DNA of 64,000 nt. Origin: Candidatus Magnetocorallium paracelense. Its GTDB lineage: Bacteria; Nitrospirota; Thermodesulfovibrionia; Thermodesulfovibrionales; Magnetobacteriaceae. The notes beneath the pieces are model-generated. The model ran no database searches and was not told the origin of the DNA. It was given only the letters and a program-made list of their open reading frames with translations. The DNA lies in NCBI GenBank assembly GCA_029001845.1, contig JAREWP010000083.1, forward strand, positions 1 through 64,000, written 5' to 3'. The translations under genes and the position numbers were made by a program. Positions 41,759 through 56,554 of this stretch are shown in pieces (the first letter of the stretch is position 1; each line of letters opens with the position of its first letter).

Positions 41759-43075
41759 GTGAGCACGCTGCATAAAATCATTATCGACGATTCGCGCGAT
41801 ATGAGCATGGTTCAGAATAATTCGATTCAACTGGTTGTTACATCACCTCCCTATTGGCAGTTGAAGGACTACGGCGGAGTCGAACAAATCGGCTTTAACG
41901 ACTCCTATGAAGACTACATTAACAACCTCAATCTTGTATGGAAGGAGTGTTATCGAGTTCTGGAAAACGGCTGCCGTCTGTGCGTCAATATCGGTGATCA
42001 GTTTGCAAGAGCCGCCTATTACGGCAGATATAAGATAATACCGATCAGAACGGAGATCATTAAATTCTGCGAAACTATAGGATTCGATTACATGGGCGCC
42101 ATTATCTGGCAAAAAGTAACTACTACCAATACTTCGGGAGGCGCTTCAATCATGGGTTCTTATCCATATCCAAGAAACGGCATTCTTAAGCTCGATTATG
42201 AGTTCATATTGTTATTTAAAAAAGGTGGCAAAGAGAGAAAAACGGAGAGGCAATTAAGAGAGCTTTCGGCCCTTACAAAAGAGGAGTGGAACGAATATTT
42301 TTACGGCCACTGGAATTTTCCCGGAGAAAAGCAGAGGAAACATCTCGCAATGTTCCCAATTGAATTGCCGAACAGGTTGATCAAGATGTTTACTTTTGTC
42401 GGAGAGACAGTGCTTGATCCCTTTCTTGGAAGCGGTACGACTTCTTTAAGTGCATCGAATCTGAAAAGAAATTCCATCGGTATTGAAATCAACAAAGAAT
42501 TTCTTCCTCTTATCAAAGAAAGGCTTAGTAAAGAGAGCTCGAATCATGATGGAGAGATCGAAACGGAGATAAAAGTACAGGGAAGGAAAACAATCGATTT
42601 TAAGGCGGAAATTAAAAAATTGCCTTACATATTCAAAGACCCTGTCAGAATCGATAAAAAAACGGACCCTAAAAAGAGTAACTTCGGTTCGAAAATCGAT
42701 AAGAATTCAAAAGAGGAGATTACGTATTTCAACGTCAAAAGAGTTATTGCTCCAGACATGGTGGAGCTGAAAAACAATATGTATGTAAAGTTGCTTGGTG
42801 TAGCAGTAAAAGAGGAGAAGAGGGAAGAGGCTGTCGATTTCCTGATTTCCAAAACAAAAGGACAGAAGGTATTCCTCAAATATGATAAATACAAAACAGA
42901 TGAGTCGGGAAATACTTATTCCTATCTTTTCCTAAAAAATAAAACCTTTTTAAATGCACAATTAATTAAGGCGGGTTTGGCCATAGCAGACAGAAAAAAA
43001 AACTACAGACATAGTCGAAGGTTTATTGAGTACGAGGAGAGTTGTGAGAAAACCAGAATGAGCAAACTAAAATAA
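41759..43075 (+). CDS. DNA methyltransferase (N4C/N6A class) fused to a staphylococcal-nuclease-like domain
   Basis: A 438-residue protein starting at GTG 41759. The methyltransferase part (about 1-265) has motif IV T-S-P-P-Y-W near residue 28 before motif I D-P-F-L-G-S-G-T-T near 222, the beta-class order; S-P-P-Y favours N4-cytosine but does not exclude N6-adenine. The tail (about 315-430) aligns by eye with staphylococcal nuclease: V-I-A-P-D-M-V-E-L, Y-V-K-L-L-G-V, K-G-Q-K-V-F-L-K-Y-D, L-N-A-Q-L-I-K-A-G-L-A. The three catalytic residues of that enzyme (Arg35, Glu43, Arg87) are replaced or missing, so the domain is probably binding-only. No restriction enzyme gene is adjacent. Coupled to the VWA gene. 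Confidence 0.87.
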   Translation: MSTLHKIIIDDSRDMSMVQNNSIQLVVTSPPYWQLKDYGGVEQIGFNDSYEDYINNLNLVWKECYRVLENGCRLCVNIGDQFARAAYYGRYKIIPIRTEIIKFCETIGFDYMGAIIWQKVTTTNTSGGASIMGSYPYPRNGILKLDYEFILLFKKGGKERKTERQLRELSALTKEEWNEYFYGHWNFPGEKQRKHLAMFPIELPNRLIKMFTFVGETVLDPFLGSGTTSLSASNLKRNSIGIEINKEFLPLIKERLSKESSNHDGEIETEIKVQGRKTIDFKAEIKKLPYIFKDPVRIDKKTDPKKSNFGSKIDKNSKEEITYFNVKRVIAPDMVELKNNMYVKLLGVAVKEEKREEAVDFLISKTKGQKVFLKYDKYKTDESGNTYSYLFLKNKTFLNAQLIKAGLAIADRKKNYRHSRRFIEYEESCEKTRMSKLK

Positions 43076-46429: not shown

Positions 46430-46932
46430 TCCCAGATCGTACAGATAAAAACAGAACTCCACAAATTTTTTAGAGAAAAAATAACACCTTTAAAGTGCGT
46501 TTTTGAATTACAACCTTCATGTCTTAAGCCGCTACTTACTCCGTTTTTGGAACTACTATTCTAAAATTTTGAAACTGTATTCTAAAAATAGAGTTTTATT
46601 TTATATTGACAATTCTTCATTTTTGTATTATAATTCTAGTCAATACTGCAGCGACATTTTTTGATAAACATTTTAATTATCGCCAGCTTAAACTGCCTCC
46701 AGCCCGGAACGAAAGAAGGTTCAGAGTTATGAAAGAGGGAGGAACCTGTGTGCAAACTGTCACGGGTGAAAACAAAACCCGGAGTAGCCAGAATCAAAAA
46801 AAAGACAGAACACAAATTATATGGATTTATAAGATTGCACAGATTAAGAAAAATAAAAAATCTATGTAATCCCTTATAGATCAGTGCAATCTGAGTTCTG
46901 TCTTTAAATATTAGTACTTTTTTGCACACAAT
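46430..46932. other. Spacer with decayed inverted repeats, no gene
   Basis: The 843-bp gap between the radical SAM gene and the CHAT gene holds no credible coding region. It has ACCACAGATT and ACAGATAAAAACAGAA-like repeat debris, and an imperfect inverted repeat whose arms contain AAAGACAGAAC and AAGATTGCAC (46801-46845) pairing with GTGCAATCT and GTTCTGTCTTT (46884-46906). Confidence 0.6.
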
Positions 46933-46969: not shown

Positions 46970-47156
46970 CGTCATTCCCGCAATCTTTTAAGCAGAAATC
47001 CAGTGTTTTGAAAAAAGAAATCATCTAATGAACAATATTCGAGACTGCCGGATTCCCGCTGAAGAGATTGCGGGAATGATGTTAAACCTTTAAATTCAAA
47101 GTATTTAAAAGCACAATCCCCCCCCCCTGTGGCTGGTAAAAATGTAGGTAAAGATA
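46970..47156. repeat. Composite repeat: CATTCCCGC palindrome plus C10 tract plus conserved tail
   Basis: Arms GTCATTCCCGCAATCTTTT (46971 on) and GAGATTGCGGGAATGATG (ending about 47086) form an imperfect inverted repeat. AAACCTTTAAA, a run of ten C (47118-47127) and GTGGCTGGTAAAAATGTAGG (47129-47148) with TAAAGATA follow. The same modules occur in inverted order at 62755-62880. It lies directly upstream of the CHAT operon. Confidence 0.75.
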
Positions 47157-47232: not shown

Positions 47233-50200
47233 ATGAAAAATTACTCGATATTGCAACATAAAATTTCATTTGTATTCGTATTCTTTCTAGTTTTTATATT
47301 CTCTTGTTTTCCTATCCATAACAGCGCATATGCAATAAACGGGAAATCGGTAGGCCGCATACACGTTCCGAATGGAGAAAAACCCGAGAATTTTTACAAG
47401 CTTTTCAGGAACGAGAAGGAAATAAAAGAGCTGTCTCACTCCATGGAAGTAAGAGCTGGTGATATTGTCGCCCCAATTAATAATAAAACAGTATGGATTA
47501 ATCTCGACAATAGATGTAACTCAGAAATAGGAAATACGAAGCAGCCGGTTGTCGTAAGCTGTAAGTTCACGGAAATGAAGGAGAGTGAAAATATTTTCGC
47601 ATTACCCTTCATTCACTTCTACGAAACCTTTTTAAAACTAAAAGCAAAGGAGACCATAGACGCAACTATCTTAGCCCTTATTTACGGTAGCGCAGCTTTT
47701 TCCGCCGTTACAACTAAAGGCGGAGGAAGCTGCGAATGTCTGCCAGATGAGGAATTTAGATTCAGCCGCATACCTCAAGATAATTCCACCCATCTGCACG
47801 GCGAGGAGATGCTCTTTAGTTATAAAGACAAGGACAACGAGTGCTGCGAAGAGGCGGAGTTGGTTCTGATGGACAGTAAAGGCATTGAAGTTCATCGCGA
47901 ATCTCTTCTTCTTGGCGAGATTATGTCGACAACCGATATATCCGGTAAACTCAAAGGAGGAGAGGTCTATCGATGGCATATAAATTTGAAAGGAAAGAAG
48001 ATATCAGGTGAATACAGGCTTAAAGTTCTGGATAAAAAAAGAACGACATATATTAAGAGCATGTTGAAAAGCATTGAGGATCATGCCGGGGAAAACGACC
48101 CTATACTGATGCAAGCCTTTTTTTTACAAATATTGAGTAATGGAAGAGAAGATATCAATCTTTACGAAAAGAGTCTGAGAATGCTCCTTGAATCCGACCT
48201 TGACCTTGACGATAACCATTATGTATATGTCCTTGAAAATCTCGCCAACTCTATCCATGCCTATAACGAAACCTCTGACGACAATACTCACATAGATCCA
48301 AAAACAGCGGAGGTTAAGATTGAAAAGAATGAAGTCGATGCCGACTTCATTAAACGACTCATAGGGCAAACCCGACGCTCACTAAGTGACTCCTTTATCT
48401 ATGAAGAGCATAAAGGCAATTTCAAGGAGGCTCTTCAGTACGTCGAACTTACTGAAAAGGCGCTGGAAGTTTACGATGAGGATGAAGACCTTCTATGGGA
48501 ATCGTGTTACTTAAAGGCAAAAGTTCTTGATTTGATGAATAGACACTCCGAGGCCATCAAAATATACGATGTACTCCTTAAGGATAGCAATGACGACAAA
48601 GAAAAAGTGGCGCTTATTCATGCCTCAAGGTGGCTATCGACAGTCAGTCAATACGTTTCACCTGAAGGCATTCTCTATATGATGACAACAGCCCAGTATA
48701 TGCCAGATATTTCCAAGAAAATGGGAGACAATCAAAAACTTCTTAAAAATATGATGAAAGAGATCAATGACACTTCAATAAAAAGTCGATTAAGGAGACT
48801 GATGTTTATTATTCACAAGATGACCATAAACGGCGCCATGTACTCGGCAAAGGACAATCTTGGCAAGGATAAAATAAAAGGGAGCAAAGCGATCTCGTCG
48901 ATCGAAAACGTATTTAATAACTATTTAAAGGAGTTTCGGGAATGGGGGGGCAAAGAAGCGGAAGCGTATGTGGAATATTCATTGACTGATTTTTTCTTCT
49001 TGGTCGGTGAGGAAGAGGCGGCTATTATAAGTAGCAAAAGGGCAATTGAGATTTACAGAGAGCTAGATGATGAAATCGGTGAAGCCAATGTTCATATGCG
49101 TAAGGGAGACTATTTTATAGGCCCGAACAACAGCCCCGATGTGTTTAACCTTTCCACTGTAAATAAAGGACTAAGTATTACCATGACAAAGGACTTCGGC
49201 AGTCAATATGTTGAACTCTCTCAAAAAGAAGTGATCGATAATTTAGATAAAACCAAAAATTATTACAGTGTGGCCTTGAAGCTTTATGAAAGAGAGGGGT
49301 CTGTCCGGGGAAGGGCTGAGATAATGTTGAGAAAAGGATATATAGCCTTCATCGAGAACAAAGCTGCTGATGCTTACACCTATTACGAAAGGGCGGCCAA
49401 ATTGTTTGAAAGTGTGGGTGATTTTAGAGGTAAAAACAGAACCCTACTCCATCTTGCAAACCTCAATATTTCAAAACAACAATTTAATGAAGCCAAAACG
49501 AATATAGACGAAATTATAAATCTCTTTAAATATAACAAAAACTACGGGATACTTGAAGGCGTAGGCGCAACTCTCGAAAGCTTGGGAATCAACTATTATT
49601 ATGCAAATGTAGATCATGAAAGAGCTCTTTTCTGCTTCGAAACGGCCATAACGTGCTATGAAAATCTCGAAGCCCCAATAACACAGGCATTCAGACTTAA
49701 CGAAATAATAACCCTGTACAGAAAGATAGGCCAGTATAATAAGTCTTTGAACTTGGTGGACAAAGCACTTGGTTATATCAAAAAATATGCTGAGAAACCT
49801 ACGCTTCCAAAGAGTTTTCCTTATCTTAATCTTAAAATGAACCTAATGCTGGAAAAAGCGATTAATAGTTATGAGATTGGGCACTACAAAAAGTCGGTAG
49901 AGTTTCTTAATGAAATGAGAACACTCGGAAAGACATCGGATAATCCTGAAGTCTGGGAAGGTGCCTTTAATTTCTATATGACATACGTCAATATTTTACA
50001 AGAGAATTTTAGTGAAGCTCTCAAATATGCAAAACAGGGAGAAGAGAATGTCTTACTATCGGGAATATATACAAAAAAGAAGGAATTCGACAAATCTATA
50101 GATGTGTTATTAAAGGAACTTGCCGATACCGATAAGAAGATTGAGGAAGAAAAGCAAAAGAAATCGTTTGAAGGCGTGATTATAATCCATAAAAACCACA

Positions 50201-51975
50201 AAGCGACAGTTTTATATAATCTGATACATGTATATAGAAAAAGCGGTCAATGCGATAAATCATTTAAGATGTTGAATGAGTGGAATGATCTGGATGTAAC
50301 CTGGAGCGACAGGTTACATAAACCATGGGATTTTGACGATATGGTGGGTCGGATATTTGAGTGCAAAAAAGAATACCAAAAAGCTTATGAGCACTACGAT
50401 AAAGCAGTCAATTCTCTTGAAACAAACAGGGAGCAGTTTAATGTAAAAGAGTTCAGGGAAAGCTTTGTCGAGGGTAAACAGGATGTTTATGAGCATACGA
50501 TAAAGGTGCTTCTGAAAATGCACGAATCAGCACTTGAGAAAGAGGGATCGGACAATAATAACTACGATGAAATGGCCTTCGGCTATATGGAACGGGCGAA
50601 GTCCAGAACCCTTCTTGAGATTCTGCAGTCTGTCAAAAGAGATTTAGCAGGTTATATTTCCGACGAGGAGAGAAAAGCTGAAAGCCTCTTAAATTCAAAG
50701 ATTAAGAAATTAAATTTAGCAATAGCTTTAGAGGGATCTAAGAAATTAAAGAATAATAAAAAGCTTACACAGCTCAGGAGCGACTTAAGGAAGGCCAGAG
50801 AGACCTATAACAGATTTATGACAAACCTGTACATCAAATACCCCGGTTTAGCACTTAAGCACGGCCAAAGCAAAGTTCTGAAAGGCAGGGAAGCAGTTAA
50901 ATTAGCAGGAGACAACAACATAAAGATTGTAGAGTACTATGTAGGTAAAGAGACTCTTTTTGTTTTTGTTGTGACTGAAGATGGTCTGAAGAGTTACAGT
51001 ATGAATATGGAGAAAAGCGCTTTAAAGAAAAAAATAGCAGCTCTGAGAAGCCCCTTACAGGAGATAAAAAAGAAAGGAAAATATACTCCAGGCAAGTACA
51101 AATATAATAGAGAGTTAGCAGGCAAAATTTATAATTTAATAGTCAAGCCCTTTGAGAGTGAGTTAAATGAGGGTGATACAATAAGCATTGTGCCTGATAA
51201 ATTTTTGTTTGCACTGCCATTTCAGGCCCTTATCGATAACAACGGAAAATACTTAGTCCAAAACTATAAAATCTTTTATGCCCCTTCTACAACTGTTCTA
51301 TATCAATTGATGAAGACCGGAACAGAAACAAAAAAGGCGGCGGCCTTAATGGTTTTCGGTGATCCTGTTTTAGGAAAAAGAGGGGTTTCATGGATGGAAG
51401 GGAGAAGCTATAAAGAGCTTCTCCAGGCAGGCAAAGAGATAGATAAATTGAAGGAGATATTTACGGCCAATATCGATGTCTACCAAAGAGAGCGCATGCT
51501 TGAGGATACATTTAAAAAAGAAGCGCCCAATGCCCGTTCACTCCATCTCTCAACCCACGGCTTACTGGACTCAAAGAGCCCCATGTTCTCAGGTCTGCTC
51601 TTTTCCCAAGGCATATCAAAAAAAGAAGACGGATTTCTCGAAGCAAGAGAGATTATGGACCTTAACCTCTCTAACGTAAACCTTGCAGTCACCTCGGCTT
51701 GTGAAACACGGCTCGGCAGGGTAACTGACGGAGAGGGAATAATCGGGCTGACGAGAGCCTTCTTTACAGCAGGAGTAAATTCGGTGCTCGTAAGTCTCTG
51801 GAGCGTAGCTGATGCGGAACCTACAACTTTGTTAATGGAGCGGTTTTATAGAGAAATTCGGGCAGGGAAAAGTAAAACAGAAGCTTTACAAAGAGCACAA
51901 GTGAAATTAATAGAAGAATCCGAATACACATCCCCCTTCTACTGGGCACCTTTTGTGCTTGCAGGGGGAATGTAA
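47233..51975 (+). CDS. Exported TPR-CHAT (caspase-like) protein
   Basis: A 1580-residue protein. The N-terminus is a strong export signal (hydrophobic 11-27, S-A-Y-A end near 34; the I-F-S-C at 22-25 could instead be a lipobox). Residues about 50-100 look FecR-like (R-A-G-D-I-V). About 380-1130 are TPR-type helical repeats such as A-L-E-V-Y-D-E-D and Y-E-R-A-A-K-L-F. The C-terminal CHAT domain (about 1270-1580) has catalytic His1442 in L-H-L-S-T-H-G and Cys1490 in T-S-A-C-E-T, followed by S-V-L-V-S-L-W-S-V, so the protease is intact. It is the first gene of a three-gene operon with SIR2-like/TIR and nSTAND1 proteins. CHAT proteases execute programmed responses when activated by partners; TPRs probably gate it. 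Where it acts, given the signal, is unclear. Confidence 0.9.
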   Translation: MKNYSILQHKISFVFVFFLVFIFSCFPIHNSAYAINGKSVGRIHVPNGEKPENFYKLFRNEKEIKELSHSMEVRAGDIVAPINNKTVWINLDNRCNSEIGNTKQPVVVSCKFTEMKESENIFALPFIHFYETFLKLKAKETIDATILALIYGSAAFSAVTTKGGGSCECLPDEEFRFSRIPQDNSTHLHGEEMLFSYKDKDNECCEEAELVLMDSKGIEVHRESLLLGEIMSTTDISGKLKGGEVYRWHINLKGKKISGEYRLKVLDKKRTTYIKSMLKSIEDHAGENDPILMQAFFLQILSNGREDINLYEKSLRMLLESDLDLDDNHYVYVLENLANSIHAYNETSDDNTHIDPKTAEVKIEKNEVDADFIKRLIGQTRRSLSDSFIYEEHKGNFKEALQYVELTEKALEVYDEDEDLLWESCYLKAKVLDLMNRHSEAIKIYDVLLKDSNDDKEKVALIHASRWLSTVSQYVSPEGILYMMTTAQYMPDISKKMGDNQKLLKNMMKEINDTSIKSRLRRLMFIIHKMTINGAMYSAKDNLGKDKIKGSKAISSIENVFNNYLKEFREWGGKEAEAYVEYSLTDFFFLVGEEEAAIISSKRAIEIYRELDDEIGEANVHMRKGDYFIGPNNSPDVFNLSTVNKGLSITMTKDFGSQYVELSQKEVIDNLDKTKNYYSVALKLYEREGSVRGRAEIMLRKGYIAFIENKAADAYTYYERAAKLFESVGDFRGKNRTLLHLANLNISKQQFNEAKTNIDEIINLFKYNKNYGILEGVGATLESLGINYYYANVDHERALFCFETAITCYENLEAPITQAFRLNEIITLYRKIGQYNKSLNLVDKALGYIKKYAEKPTLPKSFPYLNLKMNLMLEKAINSYEIGHYKKSVEFLNEMRTLGKTSDNPEVWEGAFNFYMTYVNILQENFSEALKYAKQGEENVLLSGIYTKKKEFDKSIDVLLKELADTDKKIEEEKQKKSFEGVIIIHKNHKATVLYNLIHVYRKSGQCDKSFKMLNEWNDLDVTWSDRLHKPWDFDDMVGRIFECKKEYQKAYEHYDKAVNSLETNREQFNVKEFRESFVEGKQDVYEHTIKVLLKMHESALEKEGSDNNNYDEMAFGYMERAKSRTLLEILQSVKRDLAGYISDEERKAESLLNSKIKKLNLAIALEGSKKLKNNKKLTQLRSDLRKARETYNRFMTNLYIKYPGLALKHGQSKVLKGREAVKLAGDNNIKIVEYYVGKETLFVFVVTEDGLKSYSMNMEKSALKKKIAALRSPLQEIKKKGKYTPGKYKYNRELAGKIYNLIVKPFESELNEGDTISIVPDKFLFALPFQALIDNNGKYLVQNYKIFYAPSTTVLYQLMKTGTETKKAAALMVFGDPVLGKRGVSWMEGRSYKELLQAGKEIDKLKEIFTANIDVYQRERMLEDTFKKEAPNARSLHLSTHGLLDSKSPMFSGLLFSQGISKKEDGFLEAREIMDLNLSNVNLAVTSACETRLGRVTDGEGIIGLTRAFFTAGVNSVLVSLWSVADAEPTTLLMERFYREIRAGKSKTEALQRAQVKLIEESEYTSPFYWAPFVLAGGM

Positions 51976-51993: not shown

Positions 51994-53334
51994 ATGGCTG
52001 AATGTGTTTGGGACGATGAGAACTGGTCTGCCCTTATTCATGCAATTCATCAAAGAAGATGTATCCTTTTTCTGGGACCTGAGGCTTCACAGGAAATGCA
52101 TTCTGGCAGGAGCATTCCATGTACAGAAGTACTGGCGATGGAACTTTCAGAAAAAATCAAAGACAATATAGATTCATGGAATATTCATCTCGACACTTTG
52201 AATTTGGCGCAGGTTTCACAGTATTTCACTATGATTAAGGATAGATTCGTATTAGAGGCAAAGGTTTCTGAATTTTATGCAAGCCGTCATGATAGTATAA
52301 GCGAGTTGCATAATAATCTCTCTGAACTGCCTTTCCCCCTTACAATCCTTACGACTCCGGATCTCATGTTTTTTAATTCACTTAAAGCCGTTAACAAGAC
52401 ACCTATGATCAGGCGTCATCATTTTAGAGATACAAATGAAAAACTGATTTCAGAGGGAACTGTTGATAAGCCGCTTATTTACTACTTGTATGGAACAGTA
52501 GACGAACCGAACTCTCTGGTACTTACTGAGGATGATATTCTGGATCTCTTTGTTAAAGTACTTATGCAAGAATCTCTTCCAATTAACATTAAAGACATGC
52601 TGCGGGAGAAAAACAGAAGTCTGCTGTTTATAGGTTTTGGTTTTAAATACTGGTACTTACGTGTACTTCTTCATATTTTAAAGATAAGGAGCAGGGGGAA
52701 CCGATCCTTTGCACTTGAGCATGAAATGCCTCAAAATATATCTGAATTTGAACGAACTGTAATTTTTTTCAAGGAGAGTGACTACCAAATTCACCTGTTT
52801 AAGGAAGATATTATTCAGTTTACAAAGGAGCTTCGAAAAAAGTATGAGAAATACAAGACATGTACAATAGATACGGTAGCGGATACAGAGAGAAGGGAGT
52901 ATGATCGGATGCCTACAATCTTTTTGTGTTATACAAATGAAGACAAAGTCAAGGCTGAGGACTTATATAAAGCACTAAAATTAAATGGTAACAACCCATG
53001 GATAGACAGTCATGGTCTCAGAGGAGGCGATGACTGGGATAAGCATATTCAGCGTACGATTAAAGAGATCGACTATTTCCTTGTTCTTAACAGCAAGTCT
53101 CTTATAAATAAGAATGAAGGGTATGTGTATGATGAGATATTTTCTGCCATGAAAAGACATCGTAGTTTTAAACGTGGTCTCAGATTTATTATTCCTCTCA
53201 AAATAGATGAATGCGATGTACTTGAGGAGTTGGAATATTTACATTGCATTGATCTTAAGTCGGACCATAATATCAATGCGCTGATAAAGACAATTGAAAA
53301 AGATTGGGAGCGCAGGAATAGAGAGGTAAGATGA
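51994..53334 (+). CDS. SIR2-like and TIR domain protein
   Basis: Starting at ATG 51994 (GAAGGAG 5 nt upstream, 18 nt after the CHAT stop), 446 residues. The N-terminal SIR2-like domain (about 12-290) has the glycine loop F-L-G-P-E-A-S at 26-32, L-V-L-T-E-D-D-I-L-D-L and the closing L-L-F-I-G-F-G-F-K-Y-W-Y-L. The catalytic His of the H-G motif is Tyr166 (Y-L-Y-G), so it may be inactive for NAD cleavage. The TIR domain (about 306-440) has F-L-C-Y-T-N-E-D, W-I-D-S-x-G-L-R-G-G-D-D-W and the NADase Glu381 in Y-V-Y-D-E-I. Its stop overlaps the next ATG (ATGA). It is a likely NAD-depleting or signalling effector in a cell-death type system. Confidence 0.85.
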   Translation: MAECVWDDENWSALIHAIHQRRCILFLGPEASQEMHSGRSIPCTEVLAMELSEKIKDNIDSWNIHLDTLNLAQVSQYFTMIKDRFVLEAKVSEFYASRHDSISELHNNLSELPFPLTILTTPDLMFFNSLKAVNKTPMIRRHHFRDTNEKLISEGTVDKPLIYYLYGTVDEPNSLVLTEDDILDLFVKVLMQESLPINIKDMLREKNRSLLFIGFGFKYWYLRVLLHILKIRSRGNRSFALEHEMPQNISEFERTVIFFKESDYQIHLFKEDIIQFTKELRKKYEKYKTCTIDTVADTERREYDRMPTIFLCYTNEDKVKAEDLYKALKLNGNNPWIDSHGLRGGDDWDKHIQRTIKEIDYFLVLNSKSLINKNEGYVYDEIFSAMKRHRSFKRGLRFIIPLKIDECDVLEELEYLHCIDLKSDHNINALIKTIEKDWERRNREVR

Positions 53335-55283
53335 ATATCACTGAAAGTTACAGGTACCCTGGATCTGCTCCTTTTCAAGATACAGTCCATGATCGTCTTA
53401 TATTTTTTGGAAGAGAAGAAGAGGGCAAGCTCCTTTTTCATATGATTTCAAGCGAGCGGCTGCTTGTGCTTTTTGCGCGTTCAGGTATTGGTAAGACTTC
53501 TTTAGTGAACGCGGGCTTAATGAAACCATTGAGAGATAACAATTTCATTCCAATCTCCGTTCGCTTTAATAATACGGATGAGTCTCCGATAGAATCGATT
53601 TATTCGGCGATGGATTCTTTAAAAATAGAGGGTAAAGGTTTTTATTTTAAAGGTAATAAAACCAGTTTCTGGCATTTTTTTAAGACATCTGAATTCTGGT
53701 CCCAAGATGATAAATTAATGACACCACTTATTATACTTGATCAATTCGAGGATTTTTTTATCTTCCACTCAAAAGAGAAACGTGGAGATTTTATAGAGCA
53801 GCTTGCTGGTCTTTTAGGAGACAAGCCACCAAAAGAGGTAACGGAGTTGCTGAAAACAGGTAAATCTTCTCTTAATACCGATAGTCCTGAAGTAAAAGTA
53901 TTAATTGCTATTAGGGAAGACTATCTTGCATCCATGGATGAAATGTCCATTAAAATTCCGCTCATTCTCCATAGTCGATTTAGGTTATTACCCTTAAGTC
54001 GTGAACAGGCGGAGATATCCATTATTAACCCTGGAGAGCTGGAAGATTCACAAATTAAATCAAATCCGCTTATTTTTGATCAAAAAGCAACAACATCTAT
54101 CCTGGATTTTTTATGCAAACGTCATGAGAGGGGCCAAACATATATAGGCGATGAAGTAGAGCCATTTCAATTACAATTACTGTGTAATTATATTGATAAA
54201 AAAACAGAAAGTGACAGAGAAAAACGTGAGGTTGATTCGGAAAGTCTTGTTGGCGAAAATGGAGAAAAGAGGATGGAGAAGATTTTGGAAGGGTTTTACG
54301 AAAGACAATTGAAAAGTAGGGGAGGGATATGGAAGAGAAGAAGGCTAAGCAGATTATGCGAAAAGGGTTTAATAAATACGACTAACCAAAGGTTAAGCCT
54401 TGAGGTTGGTGAGATTAGCAGGATATATGGTATTCAGAAAAAGGAACTTGAGGAGCTTGTTAATGCCCGTCTCTTGCGTGCTGATCACCGTGTGGGAAGC
54501 GTGTATTATGAATTATCTCATGACACAATTGTAAAACCTATAAAGGCCCATCAAAACAAGCATTTTATACAAAATTTTAAGTACGGCTCAGTGATGGCAC
54601 TCGTAATAATTATAATTCTAACAGGAGTATTATTTAAATATAATAAAAGTTATGACTCTCTATTATCAGATAATTTAATTAGTCTTGGTGATAAGAATTT
54701 AGAAAGAGGTGAATTTAAAGAAGCAGAGGAGAATTATTTAAAAGCTTTTAACCTTTATAGTAACAAGCGCGAAATTTACAATAAATTGATTACTTTATAT
54801 GAGTTAGAGGAAAAAGAAGATAGAGCATTTGGAATTTATATGAAATTGGAAGCTGCACTAAGAGAAGAAGTACAAAACGCCCCTAATAACATTGATATTT
54901 ATTATCAATTAGGGACTGTATTGTTTAAATTAAGGAAATATACAGATGCTATAGATGTATACGATAAAATAATAGAATTTGATTCTGACAATGAGAACGC
55001 TTACTTGGAAAAAGGAATAATTTACTTCACCTTGGAAAAATATGATGAGGCGATAAGGGAGTATAGTAAAGCAATAGAAATTAATCCTAACAATGAAATT
55101 GCTTATAGTAAGTTAAGCGATAGCTTCTTTCTCTTAGGTAACATTGAGGACGGCTTGGAGCAGGCACTAAAAGTATCTGAGTTTGAATCTCAGCGTAATG
55201 TTCTTAGTGATGCTGCATATGAGATGGGACGTCTCGCAGATGAGCTTGAATATAGCTTAAACTCAAAGTCAACAACTCGGTAG
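53331..55283 (+). CDS. nSTAND1-type ATPase with membrane segment and TPR repeats
   Basis: A 650-residue protein. P-Y-P-G-type start (Y-R-Y-P-G-S-A-P-F), then F-F-G-R-E-E-E, is the entry motif of nSTAND1 NTPases. Walker A is A-R-S-G-I-G-K-T-S (49-57), Walker B is L-I-I-L-D-Q-F-E-D-F-F, and V-L-I-A-I-R-E-D-Y is the sensor strand. A winged-helix part ends L-S-H-D-T-I-V-K-P-I. One hydrophobic helix (about 420-441) is followed by TPR repeats (about 450-620; A-Y-L-E-K-G-I-I-Y-F-T-L-E-K-Y-D-E-A). STAND ATPases act as sensors that oligomerise on a trigger. The ATGA overlap with the SIR2/TIR gene means coupled translation. Probable sensor/switch of the operon. Confidence 0.87.
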   Translation: MNITESYRYPGSAPFQDTVHDRLIFFGREEEGKLLFHMISSERLLVLFARSGIGKTSLVNAGLMKPLRDNNFIPISVRFNNTDESPIESIYSAMDSLKIEGKGFYFKGNKTSFWHFFKTSEFWSQDDKLMTPLIILDQFEDFFIFHSKEKRGDFIEQLAGLLGDKPPKEVTELLKTGKSSLNTDSPEVKVLIAIREDYLASMDEMSIKIPLILHSRFRLLPLSREQAEISIINPGELEDSQIKSNPLIFDQKATTSILDFLCKRHERGQTYIGDEVEPFQLQLLCNYIDKKTESDREKREVDSESLVGENGEKRMEKILEGFYERQLKSRGGIWKRRRLSRLCEKGLINTTNQRLSLEVGEISRIYGIQKKELEELVNARLLRADHRVGSVYYELSHDTIVKPIKAHQNKHFIQNFKYGSVMALVIIIILTGVLFKYNKSYDSLLSDNLISLGDKNLERGEFKEAEENYLKAFNLYSNKREIYNKLITLYELEEKEDRAFGIYMKLEAALREEVQNAPNNIDIYYQLGTVLFKLRKYTDAIDVYDKIIEFDSDNENAYLEKGIIYFTLEKYDEAIREYSKAIEINPNNEIAYSKLSDSFFLLGNIEDGLEQALKVSEFESQRNVLSDAAYEMGRLADELEYSLNSKSTTR

Positions 55284-55331: not shown

Positions 55332-56554
55332 ATGATTGAATCCATAACAGTAAAATCAGTAGCAAGCTTTGATGAGCATACCGGAATCAAATTGGATGAG
55401 CTAAAGAAGGTCAACTTTATTTATGGCTCGAATGGCAGTGGCAAGACAACAATCTCTAACTTTCTCGCAGATGAGAACAATTCACTTTTCAACAAATGTG
55501 TACTACAGTGGAAAGGATATCTCCCTCTAAAACGTTTAGTTTACAATAAAATGTTCCGGGAAAAAAATTTTCGGAAAAGGCGCAATTGACGGCGTGTTTA
55601 CTCTTGGGCATGCTACAAAAGAGGTTTTAGATTTAATAAAGAGCAATCAAAAGAAGCTATCTGAGTTTAAAAGCGAGGCTCAGGAAAGGAAGGCAGCCTT
55701 AGAGTCACTAAAGGAACAGAAAACACAAGAAGATAAAGCCTTCAAGGAACTTGCCTGGACAAGTATATACAAAAAGTATGAAGTAGATTTTAAAGAGGGT
55801 TTGAGAGGATGTCTGCAAAAGGAAAGCTTTAGTCAAAACCTCATTAACGAGTTCGAAGTCAATACATCCGAGACTTTAGATATTGAGGTATTAAGAGAAA
55901 AAGCCAAAACGATTTTTCACGAAAAACCTATAGAGTTACCTACTATTCCAAACATTAACGCAGACATTCTTTTTCCCATCGAAGACGATGAAATCTGGGC
56001 TAAGAATATTGTAGGAAAATCTGATGTAGATATCTCTAAGCTAATTCAGGAATTGAACATCGATGACTGGGTTAATCAAGGTCGTAACTATATTCATGAA
56101 AATGACATATGCCCTTTTTGTCAGAAAAAAACTATTTCTGACGAATTCAAAATACAACTTGAAAACTACTTTGATAACTCATACGCAAAATCAATTGATA
56201 GGCTAAAGAAGCAAACTTCTGCTCATGAATCCATCATTAATAAGGTCAGTAGGGAGCTACAGCGACACAAATTATTGGATTCTGAGAAAAGTCAACAAGC
56301 AATCTTCCATACAGGCATATGGTATGGACAATCCAATTCAGACATCATATGATCTGCTGTGGAAAGAGATTAGAGACTGGGATAAATCCTCCGCTGTCTC
56401 AATTCAAAATACAATGAGGAGAATCATTGAGAATTACTTCAAGATTCTTGGGAGATATGGAGACGATGATCTGGTTAATCATTTCTCAACAAAAGAAGAA
56501 AAAGATATATGCCAATCAATAACCGCGGTCTGTATCTTAAAAAACAGAAAATAA
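55332..56554 (+). pseudogene. Decayed AAA_13 (PrrC/RloC-like) ATPase gene
   Basis: Starts at ATG 55332: V-K-S-V-A-S-F then Y-G-S-N-G-S-G-K-T-T-I-S, a Walker A of AAA_13/RloC-type ATPases. A one-base excess in the AATTTTC run near 55567-55571 shifts the frame: the other frame resumes F-G-K-G-A-I-D-G-V-F-T-L-G-H-A and continues to a zinc-like I-C-P-F-C-Q motif. Near 56265 it jumps to another frame reading N-Y-W-I-L-R-K-V-N-K-Q-S-S-I and S-I-Q-N-T-M-R-R-I-I-E-N-Y-F-K-I-L-G, a C-terminal family block. The part with the ABC signature and Walker B is deleted, and the end is truncated. So it cannot make an active ATPase. It sits 48 bp after the nSTAND1 gene. Confidence 0.78.

What the first reader, a model, noticed from the sequence alone, without database searches (positions are those of the whole stretch)
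47233..47340. The CHAT protein carries an export signal although its partners look cytoplasmic
Residues 11-27 are strongly hydrophobic and end S-A-Y-A, a typical signal peptidase site; I-F-S-C could be a lipobox. The SIR2-TIR protein has no signal, and the nSTAND1 protein has one membrane helix with the ATPase before it and the TPRs after it. That helix could put the TPRs in the periplasm with the CHAT protein, linking the two compartments.
Basis: partly seen in the sequence, partly recalled or inferred. Interest (0 to 1): 0.6.

Follow-up and report, generated by a model that had tools for sequence, protein, structure and literature searches.

The report
Exported protease beside membrane-spanning immune-like switch
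A three-gene bacterial operon appears to place a caspase-like protein and a TPR sensor outside the inner membrane while the ATPase switch and a TIR effector sit inside; the two-gene core recurs in many phyla with sensors that are exported when they are separate proteins, so it looks like an immune- or stress-type switch that listens outside and acts inside.

Summary
The 1580-aa CHAT-TPR protein (47233-51975) has a strong N-terminal export signal (hydrophobic core 11-27, SAYA|IN site), a good RBS at that ATG and no usable start before codon 71. The lipobox reading is weaker.

The surprise is misplaced: 47 of 55 full-length CHAT proteins checked in this phylum are exported. The topology idea holds up better. 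A 19-residue membrane helix just after the nSTAND1 ATPase occurs in 74 of 80 relatives (4 of the 6 misses are contig-truncated), with more K/R on the N-side in 71 of 74, so the sensor faces outward. In Bacteroidota the sensor is often a separate next-door gene with its own signal peptide, and these exported WD40 and FGE proteins align with the post-helix tails of fused relatives.

The conserved unit is SIR2(-TIR) + nSTAND1-TM-sensor, apparently undescribed as such in the papers searched. CHAT is an accessory seen only here in exported form; the one other CHAT neighbour (Methylomicrobium) has no signal. Its functional tie rests on operon position and shared compartment. The SIR2 lacks the catalytic Asn/His pair; the TIR glutamate is invariant, so TIR is the likely effector.

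The parts
46606..46634 (+). perfect sigma-70-like promoter TTGACA-17-TATAAT, candidate operon promoter, ~600 bp before CHAT
   Evidence: 12/12 match; a consensus match only, not evidence of function
47233..47334 (+). CHAT signal peptide, residues 1-34 (h-region 11-27, cleavage after SAYA)
47335..51975 (+). mature exported CHAT-TPR protein, residues 35-1580
47515..47847 (+). cysteine-rich N-terminal stretch (Cys 95, 110, 167, 169, 204, 205), orphan in sequence; possible disulfides
   Evidence: 6 of the 11 non-catalytic Cys in residues 35-205, P=5e-4, post hoc
48415..50442 (+). TPR region of the CHAT protein, about residues 395-1070
   Evidence: TPR_12, SNAP, TPR_7, TPR_2
51112..51966 (+). CHAT caspase-like domain, residues 1294-1578, His1442 (HLSTHG) and Cys1490 (TSACET) intact
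   Evidence: (PF12770 E=1.4e-64)
51994..53334 (+). SIR2-TIR protein, cytoplasmic; start at ATG 51994 with GAAGGAGA RBS, 18 bp after CHAT stop
52918..53265 (+). TIR domain, residues 309-424, invariant Glu381
53331..55283 (+). nSTAND1-TM-TPR protein; start overlaps SIR2-TIR stop by 4 bp (ATGA)
53355..54533 (+). nSTAND1 ATPase, residues 9-401, cytoplasmic
   Evidence: PF20703 E=1.1e-24
54585..54641 (+). single membrane helix GSVMALVIIIILTGVLFKY, residues 419-437, N-in/C-out
54642..55280 (+). TPR sensor, residues 438-650, predicted periplasmic

Best explanation
The operon is a transmembrane version of the STAND/NADase type of bacterial immune or cell-suicide switch. Inside: an nSTAND1 ATPase that would bind and oligomerise the SIR2-TIR protein. 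Outside: a TPR sensor joined to the ATPase through one membrane helix, plus an exported 1580-aa TPR-CHAT protein. Proposed working: a signal at the cell envelope (for example phage attachment or DNA/tail entry, or envelope damage) is felt by the TPR-CHAT protein and/or the TPR tail. CHAT proteolysis or a TPR-TPR contact changes the tail, the ATPase oligomerises on the inner face, and the TIR domains, held by the catalytically degenerate SIR2 scaffold, destroy or convert NAD. Well supported from sequence: CHAT export, N-in/C-out topology, extracytoplasmic sensors across the family, intact CHAT and TIR catalytic residues, lost SIR2 residues. Inferred: co-transcription, oligomerisation, NAD as target, immune role. 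Speculative: that CHAT is the upstream protease of this switch. My own step estimates: CHAT exported 0.92; TPR tail outside 0.88; one pathway 0.5; CHAT acts upstream on the tail 0.3.
For: Signal peptide and start. Tight operon: 18-bp gap with near-identical RBS before CHAT and SIR2-TIR, then a 4-bp ATGA overlap; 843 bp to the gene before and 310 bp to the next ORF. Helix after the ATPase in 74/80 relatives; K/R 6.2 on the N-side against 3.2 on the C-side, N>C in 71/74. All 7 single-helix relatives with a tail of 110 aa or less are followed by a gene with a signal peptide (5/7 by the strict rule against 6/60 others, Fisher p=8.5e-4; the other two by eye). The exported FGE protein of L167 aligns over 399 aa (33%) with the post-helix tail of L172 and over 372 aa (35%) with L116; exported WD40 of L129 over 526 aa (32%) with the tail of L132. 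A cultured strain, Haliscomenobacter hydrossis DSM 1100, has the split form. SIR2 fold as in ThsA, KomC, DSR2 and Avs5; TIR fold as in SPARTA. TIR Glu381 invariant in 25 sequences. ThsA TTNYD and MHG align with tttfD and LfG here.
Against: No second case of an exported CHAT beside the cassette; the closest relatives (L099, L100, 45% identity over the ATPase) lack CHAT nearby, although L099 has only about 2 kb of upstream contig. The L178 CHAT has no signal peptide. CHAT-TPR proteins are common and mostly exported, so one may have landed here by chance. The short-tail cutoff was chosen after seeing the lengths, and those loci are all Bacteroidota, hence not independent. No function was tested.
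Confidence: 0.5

Rival explanations
1. The SIR2-TIR/nSTAND1-TM-TPR pair is the whole system. The exported CHAT-TPR is an unrelated envelope protein of a common type that became the first gene of the operon by chance or for expression only.
For: The pair is complete without CHAT in about 80 loci. CHAT-TPR proteins are abundant and exported in this phylum, and the own genome carries four CHAT genes. GC falls from 0.39 (CHAT) to 0.37 and 0.35 along the operon.
Against: 18-bp spacing with near-identical RBS and a 4-bp overlap downstream; CHAT ends on the same side of the membrane as the pair's sensor; exported third genes recur beside the pair in Bacteroidota.
Confidence: 0.35
2. The CHAT protein is a lipoprotein held at the membrane by Cys25 (IFSC) instead of a free periplasmic protein.
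For: I-F-S-C at the end of the hydrophobic core; some CHAT-TPR relatives in the phylum are clear lipoproteins (4/55).
Against: Phe at -2 is atypical, and a strong SPase I site (SAYA|IN) lies 9 residues further with a proper c-region.
Confidence: 0.15
3. The nSTAND1 hydrophobic segment is not a membrane helix; the TPR tail is cytoplasmic and the exported CHAT cannot meet it.
For: Two complete relatives (L111, L122) lack the segment, and a Nonomuraea homologue (L225) shows none at the threshold used.
Against: 74/80 keep it with mean hydropathy mostly 2-3; 71/74 obey positive-inside; some relatives have several helices there; split sensors carry signal peptides.
Confidence: 0.07

Closest known systems
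Avs5 (AVAST type 5, SIR2-STAND) and DSR2
   Same: SIR2-fold effector coupled to a sensor, in Avs5 through a STAND ATPase; fold match of this SIR2 to EfAvs5 and DSR2
   Different: Here effector and ATPase are separate proteins, the effector adds a TIR, the SIR2 lacks the catalytic pair, and the sensor lies beyond a membrane helix; Avs5 and DSR2 sense phage proteins in the cytoplasm (own knowledge)
Thoeris ThsA and SPARTA TIR-APAZ
   Same: SIR2 fold of ThsA and TIR fold of SPARTA (Z about 22 with rmsd 16.7 over 384 residues, and Z 18.6 with rmsd 1.7 over 129 residues)
   Different: No SLOG, no APAZ/Ago partner; a SIR2-TIR fusion paired with nSTAND1
nSTAND1 conflict systems (PMC8195603) and DGR-diversified STAND sensors (PMC10907252)
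   Same: nSTAND1 ATPase with a variable C-terminal sensor (WD40, TPR, FGE); PMC10907252 already predicts some STAND sensors to be periplasmic and one DGR target to carry a signal peptide
   Different: Neither paper describes the SIR2(-TIR) + nSTAND1-TM pair or the split exported sensors in the passages read
Craspase TPR-CHAT / Csx29 (type III-E CRISPR, PMC9729208, PMC10028731)
   Same: TPR repeats followed by a CHAT caspase-like protease with a His-Cys dyad
   Different: Cytoplasmic, RNA-activated, no signal peptide, no STAND/TIR partner (own knowledge plus abstracts)
Exported CHAT-TPR proteins of Nitrospirota-like bacteria, cyanobacteria and Burkholderiales
   Same: Signal peptide or lipobox, TPRs, C-terminal CHAT
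   Different: Usually 750-1200 aa, without the orphan Cys-rich N-terminal region and without SIR2-TIR/nSTAND1 neighbours

Membership tests
CHAT peptidase family (PF12770) | CHAT domain with His-Cys dyad | tested here: met
   E=1.4e-64; His and Cys columns invariant in A1 and present as H1442/C1490
Sec-exported protein (SPase I) | n-region, hydrophobic core, small (-3,-1) residues | tested here: met
   rule-based, SignalP not available
Lipoprotein (SPase II) | lipobox [LVI][ASTVI][GAS]C | tested here: inconclusive
   I-F-S-C, Phe at -2
nSTAND1 NTPase (PF20703) | match over curated cut-off, P-loop | tested here: met
   88 bits, cut-off 27.1; SGIGKTS
Active SIR2 NADase (ThsA/DSR2/KomC type) | catalytic Asn in TTNxD and His before Gly | tested here: not met
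   ThsA TTNYD / MHG align with tttfD / LfG of the family profile; window LTTPD / YLYG; the SIR2 fold itself is met
Active TIR NADase | TIR fold and catalytic Glu | tested here: met
   Glu381 invariant in 25 sequences; SPARTA TIR Z 18.6, rmsd 1.7; activity not tested
Avs5 (SIR2-STAND) | SIR2 and STAND in one polypeptide | tested here: not met
   Two separate overlapping genes
Thoeris | ThsA with SLOG plus ThsB | tested here: not met
   No SLOG or separate ThsB gene; PADLOC gives only partial ThsA/ThsB domain matches within one protein
Craspase TPR-CHAT | association with gRAMP/Cas7-11 and Csx30 | tested here: not met
   No CRISPR or gRAMP gene among the ORFs of 36-58 kb; further away not tested
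Anti-phage defence system | protection from phage | not testable with these tools
   Needs plaque assays

The most novel reading that the evidence does not exclude
A widespread, apparently unnamed class of transmembrane STAND systems senses signals outside the inner membrane, through fused or separately exported WD40/TPR/LRR/FGE modules or an exported caspase-like CHAT protein, and fires a cytoplasmic TIR effector: a bacterial inside-out NLR with the input and output in different compartments.
Probability: 0.5. Interest if true: 0.85.

Novelty: new variant of a known kind. Interest (0 to 1): 0.6.

Why it matters
Characterised bacterial STAND and SIR2/TIR defence proteins recognise phage parts in the cytoplasm (own knowledge). 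A family in which the ATPase is tied through a membrane helix to an extracytoplasmic sensor would let cells detect threats before or during entry, and would give a direct test of whether bacterial NLR-like proteins work as surface receptors. The split forms, including a cultured Haliscomenobacter strain, make the topology easy to test.

Tried and rejected
1) Relatives of the CHAT N-terminal region (residues 35-421): none in 295 genomes of the phylum or in plasmids; a single-sequence AlphaFold model was useless (pLDDT 35), so my guess of a FecR/Ig-like exported domain is untested and dropped from the claims. 2) Viral contigs: no hit with SIR2-TIR. 4) Other trios with exported CHAT: none in 80 loci, the phylum, or the plasmid hits examined. 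5) An intact SIR2 NADase as effector: rejected on the catalytic residues. 6) Thoeris or pAgo membership: partial PADLOC domain hits only. 7) My first signal-peptide rule called SPI in about 7 SIR2 proteins and was replaced by a stricter one with controls. In the CHAT survey alternative Met starts in the first 60 residues were allowed, whereas the E. coli controls used annotated starts, so the false-positive rate may be understated. The CHAT sample was drawn from the best domain scores, so it is not random. 8) Literature: open-access full texts only; absence there is not proof of novelty.

Full report
Observation. The 1580-codon ORF at 47233 begins MKNYSILQHKISFVFVFFLVFIFSCFPIHNSAYA|INGKS. Hydropathy of its core exceeds all of 2000 shuffles. 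The ATG has a good ribosome site (aaGGAGAccgaaATG), and the next ATG is codon 71. The best cleavage site is SAYA|IN; the IFSC lipobox has an atypical Phe. Six of the 11 non-catalytic cysteines of the mature protein lie in residues 95-205 (P=5e-4, post hoc), as disulfides in an exported domain would allow.

How unusual is an exported CHAT? Pfam gives TPRs and a CHAT domain (1.4e-64), with His1442 and Cys1490 intact. In the same phylum 111 of 295 genomes have CHAT. I read the N-termini of 55 full-length CHAT proteins with a rule that called 0 of 62 cytoplasmic and 8 of 12 exported E. coli proteins. It called 47 of 55 exported (38 type I, 4 lipoprotein, 5 with no clear cut site); several of the rest show signals by eye, and one adenylate-cyclase-like CHAT is clearly cytoplasmic. 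Plasmid-borne CHATs of cyanobacteria, Paraburkholderia, Azospirillum and Emticicia are also exported.

The partners. SIR2-TIR starts at ATG 51994, 18 bp after the CHAT stop, with a near-identical ribosome site. Nearly all have a SIR2 or SIR2-TIR gene directly adjacent, so the conserved unit is a pair. The same pair occurs in two other genera of the window's phylum, without CHAT beside it. One of these is probably Nitrospira (match to L162), which suggests that the window comes from Nitrospirota, a diderm phylum; this is an inference.

Topology. A helix just after the ATPase is present in 74 of 80 (4 of the 6 misses are cut contigs). Lys+Arg average 6.2 in the 20 residues before it and 3.2 after; 71 of 74 have more before. 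Because the ATPase must be cytoplasmic, the sensor should be outside. An independent test came from gene fission. Seven single-helix relatives end within 110 residues of the helix. Each is followed by a gene with a signal peptide (gap -13 to 7 bp in six, 258 bp in one), encoding TPR-like/coiled-coil sequence plus WD40, LRR, FGE or undefined modules. By the strict rule this is 5/7 against 6/60 elsewhere (p=8.5e-4); the cutoff was chosen afterwards and the seven are all Bacteroidota. The exported proteins align with the post-helix tails of fused relatives: FGE L167 to L172 (33% over 399 aa) and L116 (35% over 372 aa), WD40 L129 to L132 (32% over 526 aa). The same sensor thus occurs fused behind the helix or exported separately, which places the tail outside. 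Haliscomenobacter hydrossis DSM 1100 plasmid pHALHY02 carries the split form: SIR2, a 550-aa nSTAND1-TM, and two WD40 proteins, one with a signal by rule and one by eye. Some relatives carry several helices in place of a soluble sensor (L101-L106, L109, L137).

Effector. An AlphaFold model of SIR2-TIR (pLDDT 86.6) matches ThsA, KomC, DSR2 and Avs5 over the SIR2 part and SPARTA over the TIR. In profile alignment the ThsA catalytic motifs TTNYD and MHG fall on tttfD and LfG. Across the family the His is absent and the Asn almost always so. The TIR glutamate is invariant in 25 sequences. I conclude that TIR is the probable enzyme and the SIR2 a scaffold; no activity was tested.

Is CHAT part of it? 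For: operon layout, same side of the membrane as the sensor, recurrent exported third genes beside the pair in other phyla. Against: no other exported CHAT in 80 cassettes, none near the two closest relatives (L099, L100; L099 has little upstream sequence), and the one CHAT neighbour, L178 Methylomicrobium, is a different 1817-aa protein with hydrolase-like sequence and no signal. I put it at about even odds.

Known and new. nSTAND1 was defined in PMC8195603. PMC10907252 already predicts some STAND sensors to be periplasmic and one diversified target to be secreted. Only those two open-access papers use the name nSTAND1, and neither describes the SIR2(-TIR)/nSTAND1-TM pair in the passages read. 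CHAT proteases are known from Craspase, in the cytoplasm. I rate this a new variant of a known kind. The exported CHAT alone is ordinary; the transmembrane two-compartment switch is the interesting part.

Noticed in passing
window 41759-43075: DNA N6/N4 methyltransferase (PF01555) with a C-terminal staphylococcal-nuclease-like domain (PF00565) in one ORF, an unusual pairing.
   Followed up: no
window 55594-56554: AAA_13 / PDC-S06-like candidate defence gene apparently broken: two overlapping ORFs matching profile positions 85-319 and 588-678 of 713.
   Followed up: no
window 46970-47085: Palindromic TTCCCGC...GCGGGAATGA repeat before the operon; 18 copies of a 27-bp core in the genome within 3 mismatches, against 0 for the reversed control.
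   Followed up: partly
L178 2996-14369: Methylomicrobium sp. wino1: cytoplasmic 1817-aa CHAT protein with hydrolase-like sequence, then SIR2-TIR, nSTAND1-TM and a patatin-like 866-aa protein with C-terminal helices.
   Followed up: partly
L101-L106, L109, L137: nSTAND1 relatives whose sensor is replaced by two to eight membrane helices, so the sensor may sit in the membrane.
   Followed up: no
L147 13472-15172 (- strand): Caspase-like protein with a possible signal peptide, convergent and 3 bp from an nSTAND1-TM-WD40 gene.
   Followed up: no
L223 732-7709: Haliscomenobacter hydrossis plasmid with SIR2, nSTAND1-TM and two exported WD40 genes in tandem: a cultured model for the split system.
   Followed up: partly
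L079-L082, L131, L162: In Nitrospira-like genomes and Synechococcus the pair is flanked by a 660-720-aa protein (KPHAFVAMPFG...) and often a patatin-like gene.
   Followed up: no
L021 3354-11795: Own-genome paralogue: 2813-aa exported protein ending in CHAT; ORFs of 2600-2650 aa with CHAT also occur in other genomes of the phylum.
   Followed up: no
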